Shown in pieces: positions 12,300-44,008 of a stretch of DNA of 44,008 nucleotides (position 1 is its first letter; the number at the start of each line of letters is the position of its first letter). Location: IMG/VR virus record IMGVR_UViG_3300008450_000083, positions 1-44,008 of that record; one strand, written 5' to 3'. Source of the stretch: a virus. The notes beneath the pieces are model-generated. The model was given only the letters and a program-made list of their open reading frames with translations, ran no database searches and was not told the DNA's origin. The position numbers and the translations under genes were made by a program.

Positions 12300-12508
12300 C
12301 CGGGCGCACCTGGGAAATTCGCTTCATCCGCGAGGGTGGCTTGGTCACTCCCGACGAAGAGTTCTCGTCGTTCGCGGGCGATCACCACGCCGCGCATCGC
12401 GTGGGCATGGCGGTGAGGGAAATCGAGTTCACGCCCGAGGAGCGAGCGGAAATCGCCCGCATCGGGGACCAGATCATCCACGATAGCGAAGGTGGAGAGC
12501 ATGACTAA
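12296..12508 (+). CDS. Hypothetical protein, 70 aa
   Basis: Begins MTGRTWEIRFIREGGLVTPD, ends IHDSEGGEHD. Mixed alpha/beta pattern with an EFTPEERAEIARIGDQIIHD helix. ATGA overlap upstream; overlaps the vWFA gene by eight bases. Function unknown. Confidence 0.55.
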   Translation: MTGRTWEIRFIREGGLVTPDEEFSSFAGDHHAAHRVGMAVREIEFTPEERAEIARIGDQIIHDSEGGEHD

Positions 12509-13127
12509 CGCCTTGTGCGCCTTGTCGTTAATCCTCGCCATGGACGTCAGCGGTTCCATGGACGAGCGTGAGTATCAGCTAGTCACTGAGGGCTACGGGG
12601 AGGCCCTGCGCGACCCCCGCACCGCCAGCGCCGTCTCCAGCGCCCCGTATGGGCGTATCGCCATCGCGGTCACTCAGTGGGCCAGCGAACAGTCGGTCGT
12701 CGTGGCGTGGACGGTGGTCGGGCCGGCGGACCTTCCTGCGCTTGCGGATCGGGTCCAGTCCACGCCCCGGTCTGTCCCGGCGGGGTCCACCAACTTGGAC
12801 GACGCCATCGTCCACGCCGTCGCGCTGATGGACCAAGCCCCTTGCGGGGATCGGATGGTCATCGACGTGTCCGGGGATGGTGAGCACAACACCGGGGCTT
12901 ACGGGTCGGGCCGGTTCCTTGCGGATCAGCGGGGGATCACCATCAACGGACTGCCCATCGTGAACGCCGAAAGCCCCGACTTGGCGGAATGGTACGCCGA
13001 GCATGTGCAGACGGGGTTCGGGTCGTTCACCCGACCGGCACATGGATACGAGGACGTGGGGCACGCGATGATCAGCAAACTCGGGACAGAGATCGCGGGA
13101 ACCCTGCCGCAATGGGCAGGCCGATGA
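12501..13127 (+). CDS. DUF1194-type von Willebrand factor A protein, 208 aa
   Basis: The MIDAS metal site is visible: DVSGS at residues about 15-19 (LILAMDVSGSMDEREYQLVT), the Thr in GSTNLDDAIVHAV, and the Asp in VIDVSGDGEHNTG. The order EGYGEALRDP and PYGRIAIAVTQWASEQSVVV matches DUF1194 proteins of alphaproteobacteria. Those are usually exported; this copy starts almost directly at the first strand and lacks a signal peptide, so it is probably cytoplasmic. Start: ATG at 12501 rather than GTG at 12492. vWFA domains bind partner proteins via Mg2+; the partner here is unknown. Confidence 0.8.
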   Translation: MTNALCALSLILAMDVSGSMDEREYQLVTEGYGEALRDPRTASAVSSAPYGRIAIAVTQWASEQSVVVAWTVVGPADLPALADRVQSTPRSVPAGSTNLDDAIVHAVALMDQAPCGDRMVIDVSGDGEHNTGAYGSGRFLADQRGITINGLPIVNAESPDLAEWYAEHVQTGFGSFTRPAHGYEDVGHAMISKLGTEIAGTLPQWAGR

Positions 13128-30988: not shown

Positions 30989-32626
30989 ATGGGACCAGGG
31001 ACGGGCAGAAGCGGCGGGCCTCGCGCCACGCCGGCCGATACGCTGCGCGCTCTGGCGGGGGACATTTCGGATTACCTCGCATCGCGTGGGGAGTTGTTGC
31101 AGGGGATCGCCGCTGATCCTGCCTATGCGCCCCGTGCGGCGTCGGGTCGTGAGGCACTTGCCCAGATCATCAACCGCACCCCGGAAGAGGGTCGCGCGCG
31201 GTTTGATGAAGTGTTCGCCAACCCCTTCATGGGGGCGATGCCGGTTGCGGGCATCTTCGCGGGCATGGGGGCGAAGACCGCCGACCTCGCGAAGCTACGG
31301 GTGGCCGAGGACATGGCGGGCAAGGGAGCCGAGCCGGAAGCCATCCGTGCAGCGACGGGGTGGTTCCAAGGGCCGGATCAGAAGTGGCGGTTTGAGATAC
31401 CGGACAACGAGGCTTTCCTAGAGACGCCGCGTGGCGCCCCACCGGGATACGAGGCCCTACAGCACCCGGACGTGCAGGATGCCTATCCCGACTTGTGGGC
31501 GCAGCTACAGCAGTCCATCCGTCCGGGTCCGCAACGGGGGAAGTTCTACCCCGACACGAAGACCATCGTTGCGGAAGGCCCGACGCAGGACGTGCGCCGG
31601 TCAACGGCGCTTCACGAAATCCAGCACGCCGTACAGCAGCGCGAGGGGTTCGCGCCCGGCGCGAGCGTGGGCGGCATTGAAGCCGGGATGGACAATGCCC
31701 GGCGCCGGGTTGAGGAAACCACGCAGGCTCTCAACAGAAGCCCTGCAATGCAGCGGTTCCGCGACGATTTCGCATCGAAGTTCGGCCAGCCGTATCCCTA
31801 CCCCCTGACGGACGCGGGGATGGATGAGGCGGTTGCGAAAATGCTCGGCAACCGTTTCGGGGTGCCATCGGAAGAGGTTTCAGCGTTTCTCGCGTCCCAT
31901 CCGATGCTGCAATCGCTCCGTCAGGATTTGACCGATGCGACGGCTGGCGCCCGACAGGTGCCGGGGTATGGCACGGGCGCTTACAACGCCTATCGGAATG
32001 TGTCCGGCGAGGTAGAAGCCCGCGACGTCCAGTCCCGCGCCGACTTCACGCCTGAGCAGCGAGCGGCAACGACCCCTTACTCCTCCCAGGGCATCGCACC
32101 GGATGACATGATCGTCCTGCCGCGAAGCGGGGGCGTGCAGGCGAGCGTCCGTGGCGTCACCATCCCGCCGGATGATCTGGCGCGGCTTCGCGGAATGACC
32201 GAGGACGAGTACGTCGCAGCGATCAACCCGGACGGAAAGCGCATCCCGGATCGGCCATTCGGCCCGCAACGCCCGGAGCCAATCCGGGAACTGATGGTCG
32301 GCCTTGGGGAGCCCCCGCGTCTGGTCCGGACTGACACCTTGGCTGACGGCAGCAAGGTCAAGATCGTTGCGGTCACCCGGTACGGGAAGCCAACCGGGGA
32401 GTATTGGGCGGTCCAGGGAAAGAACGTCATCGGCCAAGCCGCGCCGACCGGCGACGGAACGGCGTTGATGGTCGCGGACGAGTTTCAAGGAAAGGGCATC
32501 GGCACGCTGTTGTCGTCCGTCGCTCGGGCTGCCGACCCATTTGCCCCGTCAGGCGGCCTGTCCGCTGGGGGAGAGGCGACGGCGCGCAAGGCATTCCAAA
32601 ACATCGTGGCGCCAGAGGATCGGTGA
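30989..32626 (+). CDS. Large virion protein with zincin motif and GNAT-like end, 545 aa
   Basis: N-terminus MGPGTGRSGGPRATPADTLR is shared with the 178-aa protein at 38839. Around residues 200-225 there is VRRSTALHEIQHAVQQREGF: HEIQH (209-213) is a zinc-metallopeptidase-like motif found in large polyvalent virion proteins of podoviruses. Near the end, MVADEFQGKGIGTLLSSVAR resembles the acetyl-CoA-binding turn of GNAT enzymes. Such proteins are injected or lie inside the head. A +1 frame after the stop continues GDRDEFLTSVGMPF, suggesting the original C-terminus has been frameshifted. Confidence 0.65.
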   Translation: MGPGTGRSGGPRATPADTLRALAGDISDYLASRGELLQGIAADPAYAPRAASGREALAQIINRTPEEGRARFDEVFANPFMGAMPVAGIFAGMGAKTADLAKLRVAEDMAGKGAEPEAIRAATGWFQGPDQKWRFEIPDNEAFLETPRGAPPGYEALQHPDVQDAYPDLWAQLQQSIRPGPQRGKFYPDTKTIVAEGPTQDVRRSTALHEIQHAVQQREGFAPGASVGGIEAGMDNARRRVEETTQALNRSPAMQRFRDDFASKFGQPYPYPLTDAGMDEAVAKMLGNRFGVPSEEVSAFLASHPMLQSLRQDLTDATAGARQVPGYGTGAYNAYRNVSGEVEARDVQSRADFTPEQRAATTPYSSQGIAPDDMIVLPRSGGVQASVRGVTIPPDDLARLRGMTEDEYVAAINPDGKRIPDRPFGPQRPEPIRELMVGLGEPPRLVRTDTLADGSKVKIVAVTRYGKPTGEYWAVQGKNVIGQAAPTGDGTALMVADEFQGKGIGTLLSSVARAADPFAPSGGLSAGGEATARKAFQNIVAPEDR

Positions 32627-33953: not shown

Positions 33954-34949
33954 ATGCCTGCTGGTCAGGTTTGGTCCACGAACTCGCTTGGCGGGTTCCT
34001 CTATGCCGACGAACTGTCGGACGTCCTGCGCACCGAGGTGCGTTCCACCAACAAGTTCCGCCAGCTTTGCGATGCCCAGGACTTCAGCGACAAGGGCCTC
34101 CACCACGGCCAGACCGTGACGTGGAACGTCTACTCGAAGCTGGACGGCACCGCGACGACGCTGGCGGAAACGACGGCGATGCCTGAGACGAACTTCCGCG
34201 TCACTCAGGGCACGGCGACCGTGTTGGAGTGGGGCCGGGCCGTTCCGTTCACCTCGCTTGTCGATTATTTCGCCAAGCATTCGGTGAACGAGGTCACCCG
34301 CAACGTCCTCGCCCGCGACTGCCGCGAGACGCTGGACCGCGCCGCGTTTGCCGAGTTCAACAAGACGGCGCTCCGTTACGTGGGCACGGCGACGGCTGCG
34401 GCCGGCGTTCTGACCACGAACGGCACGGCGACCGCCACCAACTCGTCGGCGCTCAACAAGTACCACGTCCGCGCCATCGTGGACACGATGAAGGAACGGA
34501 ACATCCCCGCATATTCCGGGGACGACTACATGGCGATCGGCCGCCCCACTGGCTACCGCGTCCTGCGGAACGAGCTGGAGACGGTGAGCCAGTACGTCGA
34601 AAGCGGGTACGCGAAGATCCTGCGCGGCGAGATCGGTCGCTTCGAGGGCTGCCGCTTCATCGAGCAGACCAACATCCCGCGTGGTCGTGCCGCGTCGGGT
34701 GCGACCACGATCCCGGACGGCGTGGTGTGGTCTTCGAGCCAGGCCGATTGGTGCTTCTTCATGGGCGCCGACACGGTGGCCGAGGTCATTTCGGTTCCGC
34801 CCGAGGTTCGTGGCAAGATCCCGTCCGACTACGGCCGGTCGCTTGGCATGGCTTGGTATGCGCTCGAAGGGTTTGGCATCATCTACTCTTCGGGCAACGA
34901 TCCGGCCGCCACGAACGCCCGCATCATCAAATGGGACTCCGCCGCCTGA
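33954..34949 (+). CDS. Major capsid protein, N4gp56-like
   Basis: The 331-aa protein begins MPAGQVWSTNSLGGFLYADE and shows the HK97-fold N4gp56 pattern: LSDVLRTEVRSTNKFRQLCD, QTVTWNVYSKLDGTATTLAE, VLEWGRAVPFTSLVDYFAKH, then GDDYMAIGRPTGYRVLRNEL and FEGCRFIEQTNIPRG. This places the phage among podovirus-like groups with N4gp56-type capsids. GAAGGAATACGAAC precedes the ATG. An intrinsic terminator follows. Confidence 0.88.
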   Translation: MPAGQVWSTNSLGGFLYADELSDVLRTEVRSTNKFRQLCDAQDFSDKGLHHGQTVTWNVYSKLDGTATTLAETTAMPETNFRVTQGTATVLEWGRAVPFTSLVDYFAKHSVNEVTRNVLARDCRETLDRAAFAEFNKTALRYVGTATAAAGVLTTNGTATATNSSALNKYHVRAIVDTMKERNIPAYSGDDYMAIGRPTGYRVLRNELETVSQYVESGYAKILRGEIGRFEGCRFIEQTNIPRGRAASGATTIPDGVVWSSSQADWCFFMGADTVAEVISVPPEVRGKIPSDYGRSLGMAWYALEGFGIIYSSGNDPAATNARIIKWDSAA

Positions 34950-34964
34950 TACCACGGCGGCCGA

Positions 34965-35002
34965 ACGGGGCATGGTCTGACGACTGCGCCCCGTCTTTTT
35001 TC
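34965..35002 (+). terminator. Terminator after the capsid gene
   Basis: ACGGGGC (34965-34971) pairs with GCCCCGT (34988-34994), with an inner GTC/GAC stem, followed by CTTTTTTC. It should lower expression of downstream genes relative to the capsid protein. Confidence 0.75.
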
Positions 35003-35029
35003 AACTGCCGTGGATAAGGAGCTAAAGCC

Positions 35030-35446
35030 ATGGCTTACAGTGTATCGTATGATCACCCCACCTACGCGGGCCGAACGCTGGTCCAGGGTGGGTCTTCGGC
35101 GGCCGGCACGCTCGCCGTCTCCGCTTCGATCCTGCACCCGGCGGCGCAGGACCTTTGGAACGTCGCCTATCAGGTCACGGCGGCCGGCACGGGCACGGGC
35201 GCTCTTGCCCGCGTCATCAACGTGTCGGGCACGACCACGACCACGCTGGCGACCATGACGGCCGGCACTTCGGCCATCGGGTCGGTCGTTCGCGCGCGCG
35301 TAATCAGCACGGCGACGACGTTCTCCACCCCCATCGCGATCGCGGCGGCGGACTCGTTCACCTACGTCACCAACGTGGCCGATGCCACGCTGGCGGGCCG
35401 GGTGGCCTACGAGGTCTCGATCGACGCCGAAGCCCTGCTTACCTAA
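35030..35446 (+). CDS. Structural protein, possible capsid decoration, 138 aa
   Basis: MAYSVSYDHPTYAGRTLVQG, Thr/Ala/Ser-rich with a repeating beta pattern (TGALARVINVSGTTTTTLAT, VVRARVISTATTFSTPIAIA). Two bases after a GATAAGGAGCT site. Position directly after the capsid gene and the composition fit a capsid-surface or head-fibre protein; family unknown. Confidence 0.65.
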   Translation: MAYSVSYDHPTYAGRTLVQGGSSAAGTLAVSASILHPAAQDLWNVAYQVTAAGTGTGALARVINVSGTTTTTLATMTAGTSAIGSVVRARVISTATTFSTPIAIAAADSFTYVTNVADATLAGRVAYEVSIDAEALLT

Positions 35447-35462
35447 GAAGGAGTGACGCGAC

Positions 35463-35633
35463 ATGGCGATCATGCGCGGGAACAACATGGTCTCGGCCAA
35501 GGTGGTCACGGACAACCTGCCTCGGGACATCGAGTCGAAGGACATGGGCAAGGTCGCGAAGACCGATGCCCTGACCCCGAACAACACCGGCATTGCCGAC
35601 AAGTTCAATTACGGCGGCAAGTCGGGCCGGTAA
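35463..35633 (+). CDS. Small hypothetical structural-cluster protein, 56 aa
   Basis: MAIMRGNNMVSAKVVTDNLP, then RDIESKDMGKVAKTDALTPN and ends FNYGGKSGR. AAGAAGGAG precedes the ATG. Short and polar; may be a head or tail accessory. Followed by a strong terminator. Confidence 0.55.
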   Translation: MAIMRGNNMVSAKVVTDNLPRDIESKDMGKVAKTDALTPNNTGIADKFNYGGKSGR

Positions 35634-35653
35634 TCGATCACACCCAACTCAGG

Positions 35654-35683
35654 CCCCCGCTGGAAACGGCGGGGGATTTTTTT
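35654..35683 (+). terminator. Strong terminator before the heptose genes
   Basis: CCCCCGCTG (35654-35662) and CGGCGGGGG (35667-35675) form a 9-bp stem with one wobble and a GAAA tetraloop, then ATTTTTTT. It separates the capsid genes from the methyltransferase-glycosyltransferase and hldE pair. No promoter is evident in the 44 bases up to the next ATG. Confidence 0.88.
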
Positions 35684-35727
35684 CGTTGCGGCCATCCTTC
35701 GGGACGCCGCCTGACCCGTGAGGGAAC

Positions 35728-37437
35728 ATGGTCTGGAAACCCGGCATCGATTATTCGTGGCGTGAGCACACCCGTATCTGGCACCTCGCCGTCCCGTTCA
35801 CGAAGGGACGGGTGTTGGACATCGGCGGGGGGATGCATCGGATCTTCGAGCACTGGACGTATTTGAACAGCGACAAGGCCCACGCCGGGCAGCGGGTGGC
35901 TGACATCCGCGCTGACGGTGGCGACCTGTCGATGTTCGCGGATCGGTCGTGGGATGCGGTGTTCTCGTCGCACACCTTGGAACACATCAAGGATCACGTC
36001 GGCGCGCTTGTGGAATGGTCCCGCATCGTCAAGGACGGCGGGCATATCTGCCTATACCTGCCCCACAAGGACCTTTACCCGAACATCGGGCAGCCGGGGG
36101 CCAATCCTGATCACGTCCACGACTTCCGGCCTGAAGACATCCTTGAAGCGATGGAGGAGGTCACCAAGCGAACCGGGCGGGGCTGGGAATGCCTTGAATG
36201 CGAGGTTCGCCCGCAGGACGAAGAATACTGCTTCTGGATGGTCTTCCGGCTTCGGGCCGATGCGACCACCGAATTCAAGCCGTGGAAGAAGCCCGATAAG
36301 TCCGTGATGGTCATCCGGCTCGGGGCCTTCGGGGACCAGATCCAAGCGGCGTCGGTCCTGCCCCACCTGAAGGCGCAGGGCTACCACGTCACCTATATGA
36401 GCGCCAATCCCGGTGTGCAGGCGGTCACCCACGACCCGCACATTGACGACTTCATCATCGTGGATAAGGACCAAATCCCGAACCCGCTCCTGGGTGAGTA
36501 TTTCGACCGGATGGAGAGGGAGCGGTTCGACCGGGTGGTGAACTTGTGCGAGAGCATCGAAGGGGCGATCCTGCAGCTTCCGGGGCGGGTCGGGGACAGC
36601 TACCCCCATGAGGTTCGACGGAAGATTTACGACGTCAACTATCTGGAGCGGACCCACGATATCGCCGGGGTGCCGCACGAATTCCATGCCCGGTTCTACG
36701 CGACGGATCATGAGATGGCGCAGACGCAGCGCCAGCTCCTTGACAAGATCAAAGAGCCGGTGAAAGTCCTATGGGTCATTGCGGGGTCGTCGCCTCACAA
36801 GCTGTATCCGTGGCAACCGCAGGCCATCGTCCAGTTGCTACAGGAGCGGGACGACGTGCATATCATCCTCGCGGGGGATGAGCGGTGCCAGGATGTCGAG
36901 CAACTGATTGAGGACGCGGCGATCGGCTATTTCGGCACGGCGAGCCGGATCACGCGCACGTCGGGCAACTGGCCGATCCGGGCGACCATGACCCTCGCCA
37001 AGATGGTTGACGTGGTTGTCGGGCCTGAGACGGGCGTGCTGAATGCGGTGTGTCTGGAGGAGCGGCCGGCGAAGGTGGTGTTGCTTTCGCACTCTTCCGC
37101 GAACGCCTTGACCCGCCATTGGGTCAACACGATCCCGATCCAAGCGCCGGCCGGGTCCACCCCATGTCACCCTTGTTTTAGGCTTCAATACGATTTCAGC
37201 CGATGCGTGAAGGACCCCAAAAGCGGTTCCGCCGCTTGTCAGGCGATGATCAACCCGAAGGACGTGGCGGAAGCGGTGGCGACGGGCATTAACCTGCCGG
37301 ACGCCAATGAGACCGGGGCGACGATCTTGGGGGCGAACCTTGACCCATCCGGCTTGACCGTGGGCACCGTAGCGCCCGCCAAGCCGCTCACCGAAGCGGA
37401 GGGTGGCCTTCGGGTGGTGGTGTCCGATGCTTCCTGA
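35728..37437 (+). CDS. Methyltransferase-GT9 heptosyltransferase fusion, 569 aa
   Basis: Residues 1-180 are a class I SAM methyltransferase: VLDIGGG (29-35) binds SAM, DAVFSSHTLEHIKDHVGAL (77-94) is the post-II motif, and LPHKDLYP lies near the active site. Residues 191-530 are a GT9 (ADP-heptose:LPS heptosyltransferase family) domain: RLGAFGDQIQAASVLPHLKA at 197, VIAGSSPHK at 350, VGPETGVLNA (431-440) for sugar-nucleotide binding, and the Cys cluster CHPC...C...C (480, 483, 493, 504) frequent in the family. It would transfer heptose and modify the acceptor or sugar. It overlaps hldE by 11 bases. Confidence 0.85.
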   Translation: MVWKPGIDYSWREHTRIWHLAVPFTKGRVLDIGGGMHRIFEHWTYLNSDKAHAGQRVADIRADGGDLSMFADRSWDAVFSSHTLEHIKDHVGALVEWSRIVKDGGHICLYLPHKDLYPNIGQPGANPDHVHDFRPEDILEAMEEVTKRTGRGWECLECEVRPQDEEYCFWMVFRLRADATTEFKPWKKPDKSVMVIRLGAFGDQIQAASVLPHLKAQGYHVTYMSANPGVQAVTHDPHIDDFIIVDKDQIPNPLLGEYFDRMERERFDRVVNLCESIEGAILQLPGRVGDSYPHEVRRKIYDVNYLERTHDIAGVPHEFHARFYATDHEMAQTQRQLLDKIKEPVKVLWVIAGSSPHKLYPWQPQAIVQLLQERDDVHIILAGDERCQDVEQLIEDAAIGYFGTASRITRTSGNWPIRATMTLAKMVDVVVGPETGVLNAVCLEERPAKVVLLSHSSANALTRHWVNTIPIQAPAGSTPCHPCFRLQYDFSRCVKDPKSGSAACQAMINPKDVAEAVATGINLPDANETGATILGANLDPSGLTVGTVAPAKPLTEAEGGLRVVVSDAS

Positions 37438-38767
37438 CGATATCCGCCCCATCGTCGTCGTCGGGGATGTGATGCTTGACGTCACGATCCACGGCGAGGT
37501 CACGCGCATCTCTCCCGAGGCCCCGGTGCCGGTGGTGAAGCGGCAGCGGGTGGAAGAGGTGCTTGGCGGGGCGGGGAACGTGGCTGCGAACATCGCGGCC
37601 ATGGGCGCCCCGGTGAAACTCATTTCGGTCGTGGGGGATGACGACGCCGCGCACCGGATGCGTCAGGCGTGCTACACGGCGGGGGTGGGGTGCTATCTGC
37701 ATCCCGACCGCGCACGTCCCACGACGAGCAAAACGCGCATCGTGTCGAGCGGGCATCAGATGATCCGCATGGACGATGAGAGCACGGCCCCCATCAGCCG
37801 GGACGTCGAAGAGAAGATCATCAGTCAGGTGACCCACGCGCTCGAAGGCGCGGCGGTGCTGGTCATTTCCGACTATGCGAAGGGCGTCCTCACGGAACGG
37901 GTGTTGCAGGAGATCATCACGGCGGCGACCGAGAAGGTGCTTGTCGTGGTGGACCCGAAGCACACGAACTGGTCCCGGTACGAAGGGGCCGACGTCATCA
38001 AGCCGAACGCCGGGGAGATGGCGGCGGCGGCGGGGAAGCCTACGGGGACGGATTGCGAGGTGGAGGCATCGGGCTATTGGATGCTCGCCGGCTACTCGGT
38101 CGGGGTGATCGTCTGCACCCGTGCGGAAGATGGGGCGACGCTCATTCGGGACGGCGTGGATGCCCTCCACGTCCGGGGAGAGCGGCGGAAGGTCCGCGAT
38201 GTCCAGGGTGCCGGGGATACCGCCCTTGCGGGGCTTGCGGTTGCCCTCGCTGCGGGGCTCGATCTTGAAGCCGCGACGGAACTGGCGGTCCATGCGTCGG
38301 GCCTTGCGGTGGAGCGACCGGGGACGGCGGTGGTGGGGCGCTATGACCTGTTCACGACGAAGGAAGTCGTCGGCGTGGCGAACGGGTGCTTTGACCTGTT
38401 TCATCCGGGCCACCTGCACTTGATCCGGGCGGCCCAAGAGGAATGCGACCGGCTCGTCGTACTGGTCAATTCGGACGAAAGCGTGCGGGCGTTGAAGGGT
38501 GACGGGCGTCCGGTGTGGAACGAACTGGTCCGATCCGAGATGGTCCGGGCGCACCTCCGTCCGGGCGACGACGTGGTGGTATTCCGGTCGGAGCAAGAGT
38601 TGGCGTCGCTGATTGAAAGGCTCTCCCCCGATGTGTTGGTGAAGGGCGGGGAGTACCGGGGGAATCCGGTCGTGGGATCGGAGTTCGCGGGGCGTTTGTG
38701 TTTCGTGCCTCGGCTTGGGGACCATTCGACCACGGCGCTGGTGGACAAAATCGCCCGCGCGGCGTAG
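37427..38767 (+). CDS. hldE: Bifunctional heptose kinase/ADP-transferase HldE
   Basis: The 446-aa protein has an N-terminal PfkB/ribokinase-type kinase: GGAGNVAANIAAMGA (47-61), DPKHTNW (176), IKPNAGEM and GAGDTALAG (261-269, catalytic Asp264). The C-terminal nucleotidyltransferase starts VGVANGCFDLFHPGHLHLIR with HPGH at 326-329 and ends with GGEY and DHSTTALVDKI. It phosphorylates heptose 7-phosphate at C1 and, after phosphate removal at C7, adds AMP to give ADP-heptose. Slightly shorter than the E. coli enzyme. Start at ATG 37427 rather than 37403, which would extend the overlap. Both active sites look intact. Confidence 0.93.
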   Translation: MLPDDIRPIVVVGDVMLDVTIHGEVTRISPEAPVPVVKRQRVEEVLGGAGNVAANIAAMGAPVKLISVVGDDDAAHRMRQACYTAGVGCYLHPDRARPTTSKTRIVSSGHQMIRMDDESTAPISRDVEEKIISQVTHALEGAAVLVISDYAKGVLTERVLQEIITAATEKVLVVVDPKHTNWSRYEGADVIKPNAGEMAAAAGKPTGTDCEVEASGYWMLAGYSVGVIVCTRAEDGATLIRDGVDALHVRGERRKVRDVQGAGDTALAGLAVALAAGLDLEAATELAVHASGLAVERPGTAVVGRYDLFTTKEVVGVANGCFDLFHPGHLHLIRAAQEECDRLVVLVNSDESVRALKGDGRPVWNELVRSEMVRAHLRPGDDVVVFRSEQELASLIERLSPDVLVKGGEYRGNPVVGSEFAGRLCFVPRLGDHSTTALVDKIARAA

Positions 38768-38770
38768 ACT
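38742..38770 (+). promoter_or_regulatory. Module C: promoter with conserved start-site element
   Basis: TGGACA (38742-38747), 17 bases, TAGACT (38765-38770), then AAATTGAGAAT at 38772-38782. The -35 and spacer lie inside the end of hldE and differ from modules A and B, but the start-site element and the terminator arrangement are the same. Confidence 0.6.
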
Positions 38771-38796
38771 GAAATTGAGAATTCGACGTTCTGCCC

Positions 38797-38826
38797 GAGG
38801 CGCCACAGCGGCGCCTCTTTTCGTTT
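38797..38826 (+). terminator. Module C: promoter-proximal terminator
   Basis: GAGGCGCC (38797-38804) and GGCGCCTC (38810-38817) form a perfect 8-bp stem with ACAGC loop, followed by TTTTCGTTT. It would stop transcripts from both the hldE operon and the module C promoter before the 38839 gene. Confidence 0.82.
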
Positions 38827-38838
38827 GTGGAGGGTGCC

Positions 38839-39375
38839 ATGGGGCCAGGGACCGGCAGGAGTTCCGCGCCGACCCTGACGCCGGCCGACACGCTCGCGGA
38901 CCTGATGGGCGCGGGCCGGGCCGCGCTTGGGTGGGCGCAGGACAACCCCTTGGACGCGGCGGCGCTTGCGGTGTCGCCGGTTCCGGTGGTGGGGGACATC
39001 GCCGGCATCGCGAACGACGTGCGGCACTACGTCAACGAGCCTGAGACGCGGACGGTCAGCAACGCGCTGATGTCGCTCATGGGGCTGTTGCCGTTCGTGC
39101 CCAGTATGGCGGGGGCGATCGGGCGGGCGGGCGGGTCTTTTGAACTGGACTACTTCGGCCAGCCGATCCGCATCCTCCAAAACCCATCCACGCAGCAACA
39201 GGTCGGGTTTCTGAACCGGACGAAGTACAAGGCGGCGCGTCGGATCGTGGACCCTGAGACGGGCGACACGTACTTGTGGGACGCGAACGACCCCGCACTC
39301 CATGCCATGGTGGCCGAGCAGCTTGGCATCAAGCCGGGCGGCAAGACCATCATGGACATGATCGGCTTGGATTAG
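38839..39375 (+). CDS. Virion-type protein, 178 aa
   Basis: MGPGTGRSSAPTLTPADTLA repeats the N-terminus of the 545-aa virion protein, then AQDNPLDAAALAVSPVPVVG and TRTVSNALMSLMGLLPFVPS, a hydrophobic segment found in podovirus internal proteins. The C-terminus NRTKYKAARRIVDPETGDTY LWD is a domain also encoded on the opposite strand in the next gene. TGGAGGGTGCC leader precedes the ATG, shared with the adaptor gene at 40370. Stop codons of the two convergent genes overlap. Confidence 0.6.
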   Translation: MGPGTGRSSAPTLTPADTLADLMGAGRAALGWAQDNPLDAAALAVSPVPVVGDIAGIANDVRHYVNEPETRTVSNALMSLMGLLPFVPSMAGAIGRAGGSFELDYFGQPIRILQNPSTQQQVGFLNRTKYKAARRIVDPETGDTYLWDANDPALHAMVAEQLGIKPGGKTIMDMIGLD

Positions 39376-39584
39376 TCGTCGGTGATGATGTCTCCCGCGC
39401 CGGGGGGGCGGTCGTAAGGAACCTTGAGGTGCGCGGCCCCTTCGGCGTGGGTCGCCTGCTCGGCAGGCCAGTACCAGTGGTCGCCGTTCCGAGGGTCGGT
39501 GATCCGGCGGGCTGCTTTGTATTTCGACGCGGCGATGATGCCGCGCACGTCGGCGTCACTCGGGTTTCGGGTCGGATTGAACAT
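39372..39584 (-). CDS. KYKAARRI-domain protein, 70 aa (inverted paralogue)
   Basis: MFNPTRNPSDADVRGIIAAS, then KYKAARRITDPRNGDHWYWP AEQATHAEGA. It is clearly homologous to the C-terminus of the convergent 178-aa protein (TKYKAARRIVDPETGDTYLW). Last gene of the minus-strand cassette. Alternative longer start at 39668 lies inside the upstream gene. Function unknown; the motif occurs in phage proteins. Confidence 0.65.
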   Translation of the reverse strand: MFNPTRNPSDADVRGIIAASKYKAARRITDPRNGDHWYWPAEQATHAEGAAHLKVPYDRPPGAGDIITDD

Positions 39585-39726
39585 CGGCGTCCTCGCAAAG
39601 AGTTGCCGCCAGCGCACGAACTGCGCTGACGGCCTGATCGGTGTCGGGCACCCACACGCGGATTTCACGAAGCCCGCGCTTTCGCTTGCGGGCCTCGGTG
39701 GCGCGGACGTACTTGGCGGTGGTCAC
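39556..39726 (-). CDS. Small basic protein, 56 aa
   Basis: GTG start in a GTGA overlap: MTTAKYVRATEARKRKRGLR, EIRVWVPDTDQAVSAVRALA. The pattern RKRGLREIRVWVPDT resembles MazE-type antitoxin (DUF3018-like) ribbon-helix-helix N-termini, GLRxIxIWVPDT, so DNA binding is likely. It could be the repressor of this cassette's TTACGCCGTAA sites. No toxin gene of the MazF type is seen beside it. Confidence 0.55.
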   Translation of the reverse strand: MTTAKYVRATEARKRKRGLREIRVWVPDTDQAVSAVRALAATLCEDADVQSDPKPE

Positions 39727-39911
39727 GGGACAGTCACGCCGTCCCGGCCGCAGCCGGGGCCGTAGATGATGGCGGGGTGGGCGGCGCGGTTTTCCAGCTT
39801 GTACAGGATGTTGAGCGCCCGCTTTTCGGCGGCCTCATAGGTCGGCCAGAAACGGCGGTAGCGGACGGACACGTTGCCCCAGAACGTCAGTTCAAACTTG
39901 CCGGTGGTCAT
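39723..39911 (-). CDS. Small hypothetical protein, 62 aa
   Basis: MTTGKFELTFWGNVSVRYRR, then FWPTYEAAEKRALNILYKLE and AAHPAIIYGPGCGRDGVTVP. A beta-hairpin, helix, beta layout. Start at 39911 chosen for its GGAG six bases upstream; ATGs at 39917 and 39923 are possible. A perfect 7-bp palindrome (CCCCGCG/CGCGGGG, 39924-39939) lies just upstream and may control its translation. Confidence 0.55.
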   Translation of the reverse strand: MTTGKFELTFWGNVSVRYRRFWPTYEAAEKRALNILYKLENRAAHPAIIYGPGCGRDGVTVP

Positions 39912-39951
39912 GGTCATCTCCATCCCCGCGAGCGCGGGGAACAAGGGGTGG

Positions 39952-40275
39952 TCAGATGCCGCTCGCCATGGACGGCTGCGCCGCATCGCGGTCGTGCATG
40001 TCGAACGCGCCGACGTCGGAGTTCCACGAAAACTGGACGCCGCAGCCGCCGTTCGCGAGGATGTGGGCAATGAGGGCGTCGGTCGCGGGGCCGTAGTTCC
40101 ACGTCCGGTCGCCGCGGGTGCGGCCGAACTGGACCTCGTATGCGGTGTTGCGGGCGTCGTCGATCTCGTCCGGGTTGTTGAGCCACTGCGTCGCGTCGGT
40201 GAACATTTCCGACACGGTGGCCCCGGTGCCGTAAACGGCGCCGTCGTCGGTGTTATAGAGGATGAAGCCGGGCAT
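39952..40275 (-). CDS. Hypothetical protein, 107 aa
   Basis: First gene of the minus-strand cassette: MPGFILYNTDDGAVYGTGAT, FTDATQWLNNPDEIDDARNT, then YEVQFGRTRGDRTWNYGPAT and CGVQFSWNSDVGAFDMHDRD. Alpha/beta composition, no family recognised. CAAGGAGGCACC ribosome-binding site. Confidence 0.6.
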   Translation of the reverse strand: MPGFILYNTDDGAVYGTGATVSEMFTDATQWLNNPDEIDDARNTAYEVQFGRTRGDRTWNYGPATDALIAHILANGGCGVQFSWNSDVGAFDMHDRDAAQPSMASGI

Positions 40276-40303
40276 TGGTGCCTCCTTGGTTGCTGACAAG
40301 AGA

Positions 40304-40353
40304 ACCTTACGCCGTAACGTCGGCCCGGTCAACGAAAATCTTACGCCGTAACG
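40304..40353 (-). promoter_or_regulatory. Leftward cassette promoter with two operator repeats
   Basis: On the minus strand TTGACC (40332-40327), 17 bases, TAAGGT (40309-40304). CTTACGCCGTAACG occurs twice (40306-40319 and 40340-40353), 34 bases apart; each holds the perfect palindrome TTACG-C-CGTAA. One covers the -10 box and the other lies just upstream of the -35 box, ideal for repression and for looping. Confidence 0.65.
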
Positions 40354-40369
40354 AAATTTGGAGGGTGCC

Positions 40370-41005
40370 ATGGCGGTCAGCTACAGCGGACTGACGGGCA
40401 CGCGAGGTAGCGCGGGAGCCATTCAAACCTGGGTGAACCAGTCCGTCCCCGCCGACGAAATCCTAGACGACGCGCAGGCCCACATCTTCCGGCGCCTTCG
40501 GGTGCGGGAGATGATTGCCACGTCCACGGGCACCATCACGGCGTCGGCCACGGCGGTCGATCTGCCGGTGCGGTATCTGTCGAACAAGCGCCTTCGGATG
40601 GTGTCCCCGGACACGCATGAGATCCAGCCTCGGCTTGTCGAAGACTTGGACGACTTCCGGGTCTACGACGGGGCGGGCGGGGTGTCGAGCGGAACCCCGA
40701 TGATGTTCGCGGAACAGGGAACGTCGGCTGAATTGGATGTGATGGCGGATCAGGCTTATGTCTACCGATGGACGTACTTCCAAGAGCCGGCCCGGCTTTC
40801 CACGGCGACGGAAACCAACTGGCTCACCACGAAGGCCCCCCGGTTGCTTCGGGCGGCGTGTCTGGCCTTTGCCAACGAGTACATGAAGGACCAAGCCGAA
40901 AAGTCCCACTGGCTCGCGGTGGCCGAGGCCGAGATCGACAAGCTGAATGAGGAATACGACCTCGCGCAGGGGGCCGCGATCATCGACCGGCCGACGACGC
41001 GATGA
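40370..41005 (+). CDS. Head-tail adaptor-type protein, 211 aa
   Basis: MAVSYSGLTGTRGSAGAIQT, then PADEILDDAQAHIFRRLRVR, VDLPVRYLSNKRLRMVSPDT and AACLAFANEYMKDQAEKSHW. The helical ends with a central beta part resemble podovirus adaptors or tail-tube proteins (gp4/gp11-like) that dock on the portal. The TGGAGGGTGCC leader resembles that of the 38839 gene. Overlaps the next gene as ATGA. Confidence 0.65.
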   Translation: MAVSYSGLTGTRGSAGAIQTWVNQSVPADEILDDAQAHIFRRLRVREMIATSTGTITASATAVDLPVRYLSNKRLRMVSPDTHEIQPRLVEDLDDFRVYDGAGGVSSGTPMMFAEQGTSAELDVMADQAYVYRWTYFQEPARLSTATETNWLTTKAPRLLRAACLAFANEYMKDQAEKSHWLAVAEAEIDKLNEEYDLAQGAAIIDRPTTR

Positions 41006-41259
41006 CCTTTCGGCTATCCGACATTCCGACCGGCGACCCCACGCTTCAACGGTGGTGGGCGGATACGAAGCGGGCGCTTGAACAAGAGTTCGACCGCCTG
41101 TCCCGGCAAAACCTGCTTCCGATCTATGCGTCCACGGCCCTACCCGACAAGGGCGGCAAGCCTTTGTGGATTGCGGTGTCCACGGGCACCGCGCTCGTCC
41201 CTGCCTACCGCGACGGGACGAACTGGCGGCATTGGGGCACGGGCACGGCGACTTTCTGA
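41002..41259 (+). CDS. Small tail-associated protein, 85 aa
   Basis: MTFRLSDIPTGDPTLQRWWA, helical start, then LPIYASTALPDKGGKPLWIA and GTNWRHWGTGTATF. The short beta end with DGTNWRHW is typical of phage tail-tip or fibre-associated proteins. Precedes the fibre gene by eight bases. Confidence 0.6.
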   Translation: MTFRLSDIPTGDPTLQRWWADTKRALEQEFDRLSRQNLLPIYASTALPDKGGKPLWIAVSTGTALVPAYRDGTNWRHWGTGTATF

Positions 41260-41267
41260 GGTGACCG

Positions 41268-42389
41268 ATGGCTGATTCCGCGACGACGAGCAATCGCTTT
41301 CGCAAGCAGACGCTCGCCTCGAATGTGAACGTGTGGGGCGATCCGTACCTCAACACGAATTTCGACCTGATTGATGCGGCGTTGGATGGTGTGTCCGCCA
41401 TTGCGGTGGGGACGGCGACGGCGACGACGCTCACGTCCACGAACTACGCCAGCGACCAGACGCGCAACCGGGTCCACATTTACTCGGGCACGGGGACGCA
41501 GACGCTCACGGCGACGATCCCGCTGGTCACCAAGAACTACCTCGCGATCAACGATGCGGCCGGCCCCGTCCGGTACATCATGGCATCGGGGACAGGGGCC
41601 ACGGTCGAGGCGGGGCGCATTTCCTGGGTCGTGTCGGACGGGACGAATGTTCGCCTTGGCTCCCCCCGTCTGGATCAGGTTCCCGCGCCCACTTCGGCGG
41701 TGAGCCTCAATTCGCAGCGGATTACGTCGCTTGCGGCGGGCACGGCGGCGACGGATGCGGCGAGCCTGTCGAACCGGCTTGACCAGTTTGCGGCGCCCAC
41801 GACGGCGGTTTCGTTCGGGACGCAGCGGATTACGAACCTCGCGACGCCGACGAGCACGGCGGATGCAGTGACCAAGGCATATGCGGACGGCCTGTCATTC
41901 TCGGCGGCGCTGCCGACGGGCACCTCTTCGGGCGACGTGCTGATCTACAACGGGTCGGCGGGTGCGTGGGCAGGCCCGGCAACGCTTCCCTACATCGCGA
42001 CGACGGGCGGCACGCTGTCGGGTGCGTTGAACTTCACGGACCATCAGGCCATCCGGCCGGAACTCCACGACTACTCGCTGACGCTCTCCAATCTCGGGAA
42101 CGCGGGCGGGACGGCGACGGCTAATCTGCAAAACGGCAACACGTTCTCGGCCACGTCCACGGCGACGACGACGTGGGTGTTCTCGCACCCCCCGACCGGC
42201 AACCGGACCGGGGCGTTCTCGCTATTCTTGATCAACGGGGGGCAGTACACGCAGACTTGGCCCGCATCGGTACGGTGGAACGGCAACAGCGCGCCGACGC
42301 TCACCTCGACCGGCACCGACGAACTGGCCTTTGTGACCTACAACGCGGGGACCAACTGGCACGGTCGCCGTGCGTGGGCAAGCGCATGA
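41268..42389 (+). CDS. Tail fibre protein, 373 aa
   Basis: MADSATTSNRFRKQTLASNV, VNVWGDPYLNTNFDLIDAAL is the usual podovirus fibre head. The middle has repeats with PTSAVSLNSQRITSLAAGTA and PTTAVSFGTQRITNLATPTS, about 35 residues each, before VTKAYADGLSF. The C-terminus (FSLFLINGGQYTQTWPASVR, WNGNSAPTLTSTGTDELAFV) is a beta-rich tip found in many phage fibres. ATGA overlap with the next fibre gene. Confidence 0.78.
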   Translation: MADSATTSNRFRKQTLASNVNVWGDPYLNTNFDLIDAALDGVSAIAVGTATATTLTSTNYASDQTRNRVHIYSGTGTQTLTATIPLVTKNYLAINDAAGPVRYIMASGTGATVEAGRISWVVSDGTNVRLGSPRLDQVPAPTSAVSLNSQRITSLAAGTAATDAASLSNRLDQFAAPTTAVSFGTQRITNLATPTSTADAVTKAYADGLSFSAALPTGTSSGDVLIYNGSAGAWAGPATLPYIATTGGTLSGALNFTDHQAIRPELHDYSLTLSNLGNAGGTATANLQNGNTFSATSTATTTWVFSHPPTGNRTGAFSLFLINGGQYTQTWPASVRWNGNSAPTLTSTGTDELAFVTYNAGTNWHGRRAWASA

Positions 42390-43360
42390 TCCCGTTCTTC
42401 CTAGGGGCGGCGGGCGGGGCGCCGGTCGCGTCGCAAGTCTTCGCCACGACGCTTTACACGGGCAACGGGTCGTCGCAGACGATCGCAAACGGCATCGACA
42501 CGGACCTCGCGTGGATCAAGGCTCGCAGCGAGGCGTGGGACCATGCCTTGTGCGATCAGCTTCGCGGCATCAACGCCAAGCTGCGCTCAAACTCGACGAT
42601 CAACGAACTGACCGGCTCGGGCAGCGTGACGGCGTTCGGCACGACCGGGTTCACGGTCGGGTCGCAGGACGACGTGAACCGCAACCTCGTTACCTACGTC
42701 GCATGGTCCTTCGCCCGCGCCGCCCGCTTCTTCGATGTGGTGACGTGGACGGGTGATGGGTCTAGCAACCGGCAGATTGCTCACAGCCTTGGCATTGCTC
42801 CGGGCCTAATTCTCGTCAAGTCACGGAGCGGGGTAAGACATTGGACAGGTCAGCACAGGTCTTTGGGCCCAACGCAGGATATTGTTCTTTCTCTTGCAAA
42901 CGCAGCTTACTCTGAGCCGAATGCTTGGAACAACACAGCCCCAACATCAGCGAATTTTACGGTCGGAAGTTACACTAGCGCAAACAACAACCTTGAAACC
43001 TACGTCGCCTACCTCTTCGCCCACGACACCGCGTCGGACGGCATCGTGCAGTGCGGGTCGTATACCGGCAACGGGTCCGCGAGCGGGCCGACTGTGACGC
43101 TCGGGTGGCGTCCACAGTTCGTGATGGTCAAGCGGGCATCCGGCGGCACAGGCAACTGGGTCATCTTTGACACGGCGCGCGGCATTCCCGCCGGCAACGA
43201 TCCGACGCTCTGCCCGAACAGCAGCGCAGCCGAAGACGGTGTGCTTTCAGCCGCCGACTATATCGACCTGACGGCGACCGGCTTCACGCTCGCCAGCGCC
43301 GACACGAACCTGAACAACAACACCGACACCTACGTGTTCATGGCCGTGAGGTCCGCATAA
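42386..43360 (+). CDS. Tail fibre/adhesin with two DUF7483-like domains, 324 aa
   Basis: Beta-rich sequence of repeated domains: LYTGNGSSQTIANGIDTDLA with WIKARSEAWDHALCDQLRG, then VVTWTGDGSSNRQIAHSLGI and APGLILVKSRSGVRHW, then GSYTGNGSASGPTVTLGWRP with QFVMVKRASGGTGNW. Each unit is a jelly-roll-like DUF7483-type fold common in phage adhesins. The middle unit is AT-richer than its flanks. Probable receptor-binding component. Confidence 0.75.
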   Translation: MIPFFLGAAGGAPVASQVFATTLYTGNGSSQTIANGIDTDLAWIKARSEAWDHALCDQLRGINAKLRSNSTINELTGSGSVTAFGTTGFTVGSQDDVNRNLVTYVAWSFARAARFFDVVTWTGDGSSNRQIAHSLGIAPGLILVKSRSGVRHWTGQHRSLGPTQDIVLSLANAAYSEPNAWNNTAPTSANFTVGSYTSANNNLETYVAYLFAHDTASDGIVQCGSYTGNGSASGPTVTLGWRPQFVMVKRASGGTGNWVIFDTARGIPAGNDPTLCPNSSAAEDGVLSAADYIDLTATGFTLASADTNLNNNTDTYVFMAVRSA

Positions 43361-43899
43361 TGAAAACGTGCGCCGTCCCAAATTGCACGGGGAAACACAG
43401 CGCCCGTGGATACTGCCACACCCATTACATGAGAATAATGGCGCACGGAGACCCCAACACGGTCAAACTGAAGCGCCACGGCAAAGACAAGAATACGTAC
43501 AACCGTTGGCTCGCAATGGTAAAGCGGTGCACTGACCCGGCCGACAAGCATTTCAAGAACTATGGCGGGCGCGGGATTACGGTGTGCGAGCGATGGATGT
43601 CGTTTGAGAACTTCTACGCGGACATGGGCAAGAGCCCTGACGGACTGTCGCTTGACCGTATCGACAATGACCGGGGCTATGAGCCGGACAATGTTCGATG
43701 GGCGACCCGCAAAATGCAGCAGCGGAACCGGCGGTGCGTCCACCTGAGTATTGAAGTGGCGCGAGACATCCGCGCGCGGTGGGCTGCCGGGGAAATGCAG
43801 AAGGACATCGCGGCGCATTACGGGCTGATCCCGGCCTACGTGTGCCAGATCGTCCATCACCGTATCTGGGCAGAAGACGTCGGGGGGATTGCCACATGA
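43360..43899 (+). CDS. HNH-type homing endonuclease, 179 aa
   Basis: N-terminal Cys/His finger CAVPNCTGKHSARGYCHTHY, then YNRWLAMVKRCTDPADKHFK, NYGGRGITVCERWMSFENF and the nuclease core SLDRIDNDRGYEPDNVRWAT followed by QQRNRR. A HTH-type C-terminus (EVARDIRARWAAGEMQKDIA) recognises DNA. Such genes are selfish insertions in phage genomes, often between tail genes. ATG directly overlaps the stop of the fibre gene. Confidence 0.83.
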   Translation: MKTCAVPNCTGKHSARGYCHTHYMRIMAHGDPNTVKLKRHGKDKNTYNRWLAMVKRCTDPADKHFKNYGGRGITVCERWMSFENFYADMGKSPDGLSLDRIDNDRGYEPDNVRWATRKMQQRNRRCVHLSIEVARDIRARWAAGEMQKDIAAHYGLIPAYVCQIVHHRIWAEDVGGIAT

Positions 43900-44008
43900 C
43901 CATGCACGTCATCATCGAGGACGGCGCGGTCGTCGCCGAACTGTCCGGCTGGAACCCCGCGGCGGTCGCGGCGATGCTCTACGCGCGGGGCCACAACATC
44001 AGCCCGCC
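43896..44008 (+). CDS. Partial hypothetical protein at the right edge
   Basis: MTMHVIIEDGAVVAELSGWN, then PAAVAAMLYARGHNISPP runs off the window. ATGA overlap with the HNH gene. The start may be the second ATG at 43902. Too short to assign. Confidence 0.5.
   Translation, partial: MTMHVIIEDGAVVAELSGWNPAAVAAMLYARGHNISP

What the first reader, a model, noticed from the sequence alone, without database searches (positions are those of the whole stretch)
39372..40353. Minus-strand cassette with its own operator-controlled promoter in the late region
Four leftward genes interrupt a rightward structural region. They have a promoter (TTGACC, 17, TAAGGT) flanked by two exact copies of CTTACGCCGTAACG containing the palindrome TTACG-C-CGTAA. 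This is how a moron or lysogenic-conversion cassette would look: expressed when the late genes are silent. The GLREIRVWVPDT-type basic protein encoded inside is a candidate self-repressor.
Basis: partly seen in the sequence, partly recalled or inferred. Interest (0 to 1): 0.66.

Follow-up and report, generated by a model that had tools for sequence, protein, structure and literature searches.

The report
Self-regulated reverse mini-operon in phage
Inside the structural genes of a little-known phage sits a small backward-facing group of genes with its own switch; related phages carry the same switch and likely switch protein at one of two places, next to genes for proteins probably injected into the host, but with different passenger genes.

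Summary
Two exact CTTACGCCGTAACG copies (34 bp apart) bracket a leftward promoter-like sequence ahead of four compact leftward ORFs, inside a rightward virion-gene region. Relatives provide a natural experiment. Two lack the whole block at this site. Four cassette lineages keep both palindromes at exactly 34 bp, the TTGAC hexamer and the 56-aa MazE-like gene, while the other cassette genes are replaced (HNH nuclease, HTH protein, others). In three contigs the cassette lies at a different site, upstream of the scaffold gene. It always converges on a rightward gene that, wherever its start is visible, begins MGPGTG. Some of these are recognisable injected 'polyvalent' effectors (LPD23, ART-PolyVal). 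The last leftward gene (B) is homologous to the C-terminal domain (A) of its convergent neighbour; A and B were found in exactly the same ten contigs. Best reading: a mobile accessory module, an effector C-terminus plus a reversed operon autorepressed by the MazE-like protein. Autorepression is strongly suggested, not shown. 'Lysogenic conversion' is not supported: no integrase, resolvase or ParA in the complete 59.6-kb genome. It is not a MazEF pair: no MazF/PemK. New variant of a known kind.

The parts
40341..40351 (.). distal operator TTACGCCGTAA (within exact repeat 40340-40353)
   Evidence: conserved in L010/L011, L016, L018 (centre base flipped C/G); last base changed in L151 (TTACGGCGTAC)
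40307..40317 (.). proximal operator TTACGCCGTAA (within exact repeat 40306-40319), overlapping spacer and -10
   Evidence: arms identical in all four cassette lineages; spacing to the distal site 34 bp in all
40327..40332 (-). -35 hexamer TTGACC
   Evidence: TTGACC in window, L010, L018 and TTGACG in L151
40304..40309 (-). -10 hexamer TAAGGT (17-bp spacer), weak consensus
   Evidence: invariant in four lineages but overlaps the operator; not listed by the generic scan
39952..40275 (-). leftward gene 1, 107 aa, no known family; strong SD AAGGAGG
   Evidence: close relatives only in near-identical contigs; replaced in L010, L018, L151
39723..39917 (-). leftward gene 2, 62-64 aa (start 39911 or 39917), no known family
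39556..39726 (-). leftward gene 3, 56-aa MazE-like protein (REIRVWVPDT), candidate autorepressor; its GTG overlaps the stop of gene 2
   Evidence: Pfam PF11455 22.3 bits vs cut-off 22; in all cassette versions
39372..39584 (-). leftward gene 4 ('B'), 70 aa, homologous to the C-terminal domain of the convergent gene
   Evidence: AF2 model pLDDT 89.8; found in the same ten contigs as A
38839..39375 (+). rightward MGPGTG gene, 178 aa, with C-terminal 'A' domain (39139-39375); stop codon overlaps that of B
38828..38842 (+). left copy of 15-bp direct repeat TGGAGGGTGCCATGG (RBS and start of MGPGTG gene)
   Evidence: the motif is present once at the empty site of L007 and L009
40359..40373 (+). right copy of the direct repeat (RBS and start of adaptor gene)
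40370..41005 (+). SU10-type adaptor (virion) gene downstream of the cassette
   Evidence: Pfam PF24175 E 1.7e-17; PHROG 2941
30989..32626 (+). second MGPGTG gene: LPD23 domain, metallopeptidase-like HEIQH, GNAT-like C-terminus; alternative cassette site just downstream, empty in this window
38797..38817 (+). terminator-like hairpin after the HldE-like gene, upstream of the inserted unit
   Evidence: similar hairpin sequence at the empty site in L007 and L009

Best explanation
The feature is a self-regulated, reverse-oriented accessory mini-operon that travels with the C-terminal module of a phage effector gene. A promoter reading leftward, against the virion genes, expresses small proteins from the phage genome when late rightward transcription is low. 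The MazE-like protein encoded in the operon binds as a dimer to the two TTACGNCGTAA operators, one over the -10/spacer and one just upstream of the -35, and shuts its own promoter down (negative autoregulation). Its partners are interchangeable accessory proteins. In this phage the last of them, B, is a short relative of the A domain that forms the C-terminus of the convergent MGPGTG protein, and B most likely modulates or neutralises A. Shown here: the sites, their conservation, the insertion, the two alternative locations, the constant regulator gene with variable cargo, and the A-B pairing. Inferred: promoter activity, DNA binding by the MazE-like protein, repression, virion packaging of the MGPGTG protein, and B acting on A.
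For: Empty site in L007 and L009, where the HldE-like gene is followed directly by the adaptor. Operators, 34-bp spacing, TTGAC and AAGGT kept in four lineages whose flanks and cargo are unrelated. The cassette lies at the pre-adaptor site (window, G007, G008) or the pre-scaffold site (G004, G010, G011). The MazE-like gene is the only cassette gene common to all versions; all 8 contigs encoding it have the operator pair. The motif is absent elsewhere in the complete genome, so the regulator looks dedicated. Purifying selection on MazE-like and B. Independent scans with A and with B return the same ten contigs; convergent overlapping stops in window, L016/L018, L159, L161, and almost abutting in L160. 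In L161 B ends a small-gene operon that carries two HTH_3 proteins. Effector context: LPD23 and ART-PolyVal in the pre-scaffold MGPGTG genes; such proteins are proposed to be injected with phage DNA (PMC5512222). Precedent: M. tuberculosis MazE6, an RHH protein, autoregulates by binding at its -10 (PMC9477884).
Against: The -10 is weak and the generic scan did not call the promoter. The AF2 model of the MazE-like protein has pLDDT 71 with one strand and one helix in its better part, and no PDB match, so a ribbon-helix-helix fold is not shown. Eleven bacterial relatives (LRPIQIWVPDT type) have no such palindrome upstream. All cassette-bearing phages are near relatives, so co-occurrence of operator and gene is partly shared descent. 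In L157 B runs in the same direction as A, so the reversed arrangement is not obligatory. No terminator was found for the leftward operon.
Confidence: 0.58

Rival explanations
1. The palindromes are operators, but the regulator is a host or other phage protein; the MazE-like protein is a passenger with another job.
For: Promoter-sized pairs of TTACGNCGTAA occur in many bacteria with no MazE-like gene nearby, so several regulator families read this palindrome. Bacterial PF11455 relatives do not have it upstream. DNA binding is untested.
Against: The motif is found nowhere else in the complete phage genome, and operator pair and MazE-like gene are present or absent together in this phage group.
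Confidence: 0.2
2. Lysogenic-conversion moron: the cassette is expressed from a prophage and alters the host.
For: Insertion between genes that are adjacent in relatives, reversed strand, own regulatory region.
Against: No integrase, resolvase or ParA in the complete genome; no head-protein relatives in 385 alphaproteobacterial genomes or in plasmids; nearest named head relatives are Vibrio phages at 48%.
Confidence: 0.08
3. A selfish mobile cassette spread by a homing-type endonuclease and repaired by recombination at the TGGAGGGTGCCATGG repeats; the regulator only keeps it quiet.
For: An HNH endonuclease is cargo in L016/L018; two alternative sites, empty alleles and short flanking direct repeats.
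Against: The window, L010 and L151 versions have no recognisable nuclease; the A-B pairing and the constant convergence on an effector gene are not explained.
Confidence: 0.1
4. Spurious ORFs and chance repeats in a high-GC stretch.
For: High-GC DNA yields many overlapping mechanical ORFs.
Against: Repeat statistics, third-position-biased divergence, a Pfam hit reached independently by two lineages, compact overlaps.
Confidence: 0.02

Closest known systems
Phage morons / lysogenic-conversion genes (e.g. definition in PMC6469090)
   Same: Accessory genes inserted between genes contiguous in relatives, apparently transcribed independently
   Different: No sign of lysogeny; base composition as in the rest of the genome; a conserved promoter/operator with its own regulator recurs with different cargo at two sites and always converges on an effector gene
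Autoregulated antitoxins of the MazE-like type (Pfam PF11455; MazE6 of M. tuberculosis, PMC9477884)
   Same: Small basic protein with the (R)IxVWVPDT segment; operator over the -10 of its own operon
   Different: No MazF/PemK toxin in the genome; partners are variable cargo; fold not established
Polyvalent proteins of phages and conjugative elements (Iyer et al. 2017, PMC5512222)
   Same: LPD23, ART-PolyVal and metallopeptidase-like segments in the MGPGTG genes that the pre-scaffold cassettes converge on; encoded among virion genes
   Different: The window's own 178-aa MGPGTG protein has only the N-terminal signature and the unnamed A domain; the reversed self-regulated companion operon was not among the passages of that paper read here
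Polymorphic toxin systems with exchangeable C-terminal toxin plus immunity cassettes (Zhang et al. 2012, PMC3482391)
   Same: Constant N-terminal leader, variable C-terminal domain, and a dedicated adjacent small gene (B) that moves with one C-terminal type (A)
   Different: Toxicity and immunity unproven; B is homologous to A itself and is usually encoded on the opposite strand in an operon with its own regulator

Membership tests
Phage moron | inserted between genes that are adjacent in a related phage | tested here: met
   L007 and L009 have the HldE-like gene followed directly by the adaptor
Phage moron | own promoter | tested here: inconclusive
   conserved -35/-10-like elements with 17-bp spacing in four lineages; weak -10, not called by the scan
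Phage moron | own terminator | tested here: not met
   no minus-strand terminator-like site in 34000-44008
Phage moron | base composition different from neighbours | tested here: not met
   GC about 0.66 in the cassette vs 0.645 for the window
Lysogenic conversion cassette | carried by a temperate phage (integrase or plasmid partition genes) | tested here: not met
   PF00589, PF00239 and PF13614 absent from the complete genome G001; a ParB-like gene and a replication-initiation-like gene exist, so a plasmid-like state is not excluded
Lysogenic conversion cassette | expressed in lysogens | not testable with these tools
   needs RNA data
MazE-like antitoxin family (PF11455) | score above the curated cut-off | tested here: inconclusive
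   22.3 vs 22 bits; L151 version 21.2
Type II mazEF toxin-antitoxin pair | partner MazF/PemK toxin gene | tested here: not met
   PF02452 absent from G001, G004, G007, G011; positive controls rang
Ribbon-helix-helix repressors | strand-helix-helix fold, dimeric | tested here: inconclusive
   AF2 pLDDT 71, strand 20-27 and helix 30-43, no PDB match
Polyvalent proteins | named polyvalent-associated domains in the adjacent MGPGTG gene | tested here: inconclusive
   met for the pre-scaffold genes: LPD23 in window 30989-32626, L016 and L151; ART-PolyVal in L151; not met for the window's own 178-aa protein next to the cassette
Polymorphic toxin/immunity system | variable C-termini on a constant leader with a dedicated neighbouring gene | tested here: met
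   A and B in the same ten contigs
Polymorphic toxin/immunity system | C-terminus toxic, neighbour protective | not testable with these tools
   needs expression assays

The most novel reading that the evidence does not exclude
A polymorphic-effector system in an apparently non-temperate phage. C-terminal modules of virion effectors are exchanged between two genomic sites together with a reversed, autorepressed antidote operon, in which B, a miniature homologue of the effector's own C-terminal domain, restrains the effector in infected or co-infected cells.
Probability: 0.22. Interest if true: 0.75.

Novelty: new variant of a known kind. Interest (0 to 1): 0.52.

Why it matters
It shows a phage accessory unit whose constant part is a regulator plus its operators, while everything it controls is swapped, and it ties such units to virion effectors. 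If B proves to restrain A, effectors of this kind would have dedicated, separately timed partners encoded against the late genes, a testable idea about how phages control proteins they inject. It also gives a compact operator/regulator pair (TTACGNCGTAA x2, 34 bp apart, with a 56-aa protein) for a family of small DNA-binding candidates whose operators are not known to me.

Tried and rejected
Phage, plasmid and PDB sequence searches with the cassette proteins gave nothing useful. PHROGs, NCBIfam and PADLOC added nothing beyond weak hits. The operator pair in bacterial genomes is common, but none of the fetched loci carries a MazE-like gene, so it did not identify the regulator. Bacterial PF11455 relatives were checked for the palindrome: none. 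PF11455 was absent from the three genomes first tried. The B structure is confident but matches no fold in PDB or BFVD at E<=0.001. No RNA family and no tRNA in the window. A chance origin of the repeats and a MazEF toxin-antitoxin reading were rejected.

Full report
THE OBSERVATION. The window is part of that genome: IMG/VR contig 3300042691_012584 (G001) contains all of it at 100% identity, and its 69-bp terminal repeat indicates a complete genome. On the minus strand the order is distal palindrome, TTGACC, 17 bp containing the proximal palindrome, TAAGGT, AAGGAGG, ATG. The proximal site overlaps the -10, the usual place for a repressor site. The four leftward ORFs are packed with overlaps and end by sharing stop-codon bases with the rightward gene 38839-39375. 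Changes against relatives are concentrated at third codon positions.

A NATURAL EXPERIMENT. The adaptor protein downstream brought in relatives at 82-86% identity. In L007 and L009 the HldE-like gene runs directly into the adaptor: the MGPGTG gene, the leftward genes and the repeats are all missing and the motif TGGAGGGTGCCATGG is present once, whereas in the window it borders the insertion twice. In L010/L011 the promoter region is nearly identical, with the distal palindrome's centre flipped from G to C (leftward strand), but behind it lie only a different 78-aa ORF and the MazE-like gene. L008 has an MGPGTG gene and no cassette.

THE CASSETTE MOVES. A scan of 2.9 million viral contigs for the operator pair returned eleven stretches: seven belong to this phage group and all seven encode the MazE-like protein; four are unrelated. 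In L016 and L018 the same promoter stands upstream of the scaffold gene instead and drives a 100-aa ORF, an HNH endonuclease, MazE-like and B. L018 comes from the same contig as L007, whose pre-adaptor site is empty. A scan for the MazE-like protein added L151: cassette at the pre-scaffold site, 60-aa ORF, 168-aa HTH protein and MazE-like, with one palindrome carrying a single change and the 34-bp spacing intact. Where both sites are visible and a cassette exists (window, G004, G007) there is exactly one; G006 has none. So the constant core is operators, promoter and MazE-like gene; everything else varies.

THE EFFECTOR NEIGHBOUR. Every cassette converges on a rightward gene that, wherever its start is visible, begins MGPGTG (in G004 the contig begins inside the gene). 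The pre-scaffold versions carry the polyvalent-protein domain LPD23, a metallopeptidase-like HExQH segment, and different C-termini: GNAT-like in the window (no cassette there), A domain in L016, ART-PolyVal in L151. Iyer et al. (PMC5512222) propose that such proteins are injected with the DNA. That the MGPGTG proteins are packaged is inferred from this. The block from the A domain through B and MazE-like aligns between the window's pre-adaptor site and G004's pre-scaffold site, starting at the A-domain boundary (39145-39714 to 429-1010, 79.7%), as does the promoter region (40273-40352 to 1680-1760, 90%). This resembles exchange of a C-terminal cassette with its partner genes.

A AND B. B (window 39372-39584) is homologous to A: K-AARR-DP-G---W-A----H---A--L. 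Scans with B and with A-specific patterns returned the same ten contigs. Stops overlap convergently in the window, L016/L018, L159 and L161, and nearly abut in L160, where the contig begins inside B. In L157, a phage with a P22-type coat protein, they run in the same direction. In L161 B closes a small-gene operon that includes two HTH_3 proteins, so an operon with other DNA-binding genes can fill the same role. AF2 gives B a confident alpha-beta-beta-alpha-beta fold without known relatives.

MECHANISM. The MazE-like protein is the best candidate regulator: it reaches the Pfam cut-off (22.3 vs 22 bits), it is the only common gene, and related antitoxins such as MazE6 autoregulate by RHH binding at the -10. 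The RHH fold is not demonstrated here, and bacterial PF11455 relatives, which differ in the strand residues (PIQIW versus EIRVW), do not have this palindrome upstream. Convergent late transcription would cross the cassette as antisense, so expression before or outside the late phase is plausible but unproven.

WHAT IT IS NOT. No MazF/PemK toxin. No integrase, resolvase or ParA. The host is unknown, so absence of prophages in 385 alphaproteobacterial genomes is weak evidence. All cassette-bearing phages are near relatives, which limits how much the co-occurrence proves.

VERDICT. Observation confirmed and extended; the moron/self-repressor reading is partly supported; lysogenic conversion is not. 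A new variant of known accessory-module themes, with an untested but concrete effector-partner hypothesis.

Noticed in passing
37403-38767 (+) and 35728-37437 (+): Late region encodes a full-length HldE-like bifunctional protein (PfkB kinase plus cytidylyltransferase) next to a methyltransferase-domain protein with a long C-terminal extension; an ADP-heptose-type pathway in a phage would be worth its own study.
   Followed up: partly
30989-32626 and 38839-39375 (+): Two genes in one genome share the N-terminal signature MGPGTGRS..P.PADTL, suggesting a common packaging or targeting leader for effectors.
   Followed up: partly
L151 3204-4847 (-): MGPGTG polyvalent protein with an ART-PolyVal (ADP-ribosyltransferase) C-terminus above the Pfam cut-off.
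   Followed up: no
L022 845-915 and L044 3040-3139: Arrays of TTACGNCGTAA sites (four at 20-bp spacing in L022; several, some imperfect, at about 22 bp in L044) in unrelated phage and bacterial contigs; palindrome pairs are also common in Streptomyces and Prevotellaceae genomes. The regulator is unknown to me.
   Followed up: no
L159 3057-3746 (-): Uncharacterised 229-aa Cys/His-containing ORF next to the A-B pair in a contig with two tyrosine recombinases.
   Followed up: no
12492-13127 (+): DUF1194 / von Willebrand factor A-type protein (E 4.8e-51) in the early region of a phage.
   Followed up: no
window ends: The window is an incomplete copy: G001 holds about 15.6 kb more (tail, lysis and small leftward genes).
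   Followed up: partly
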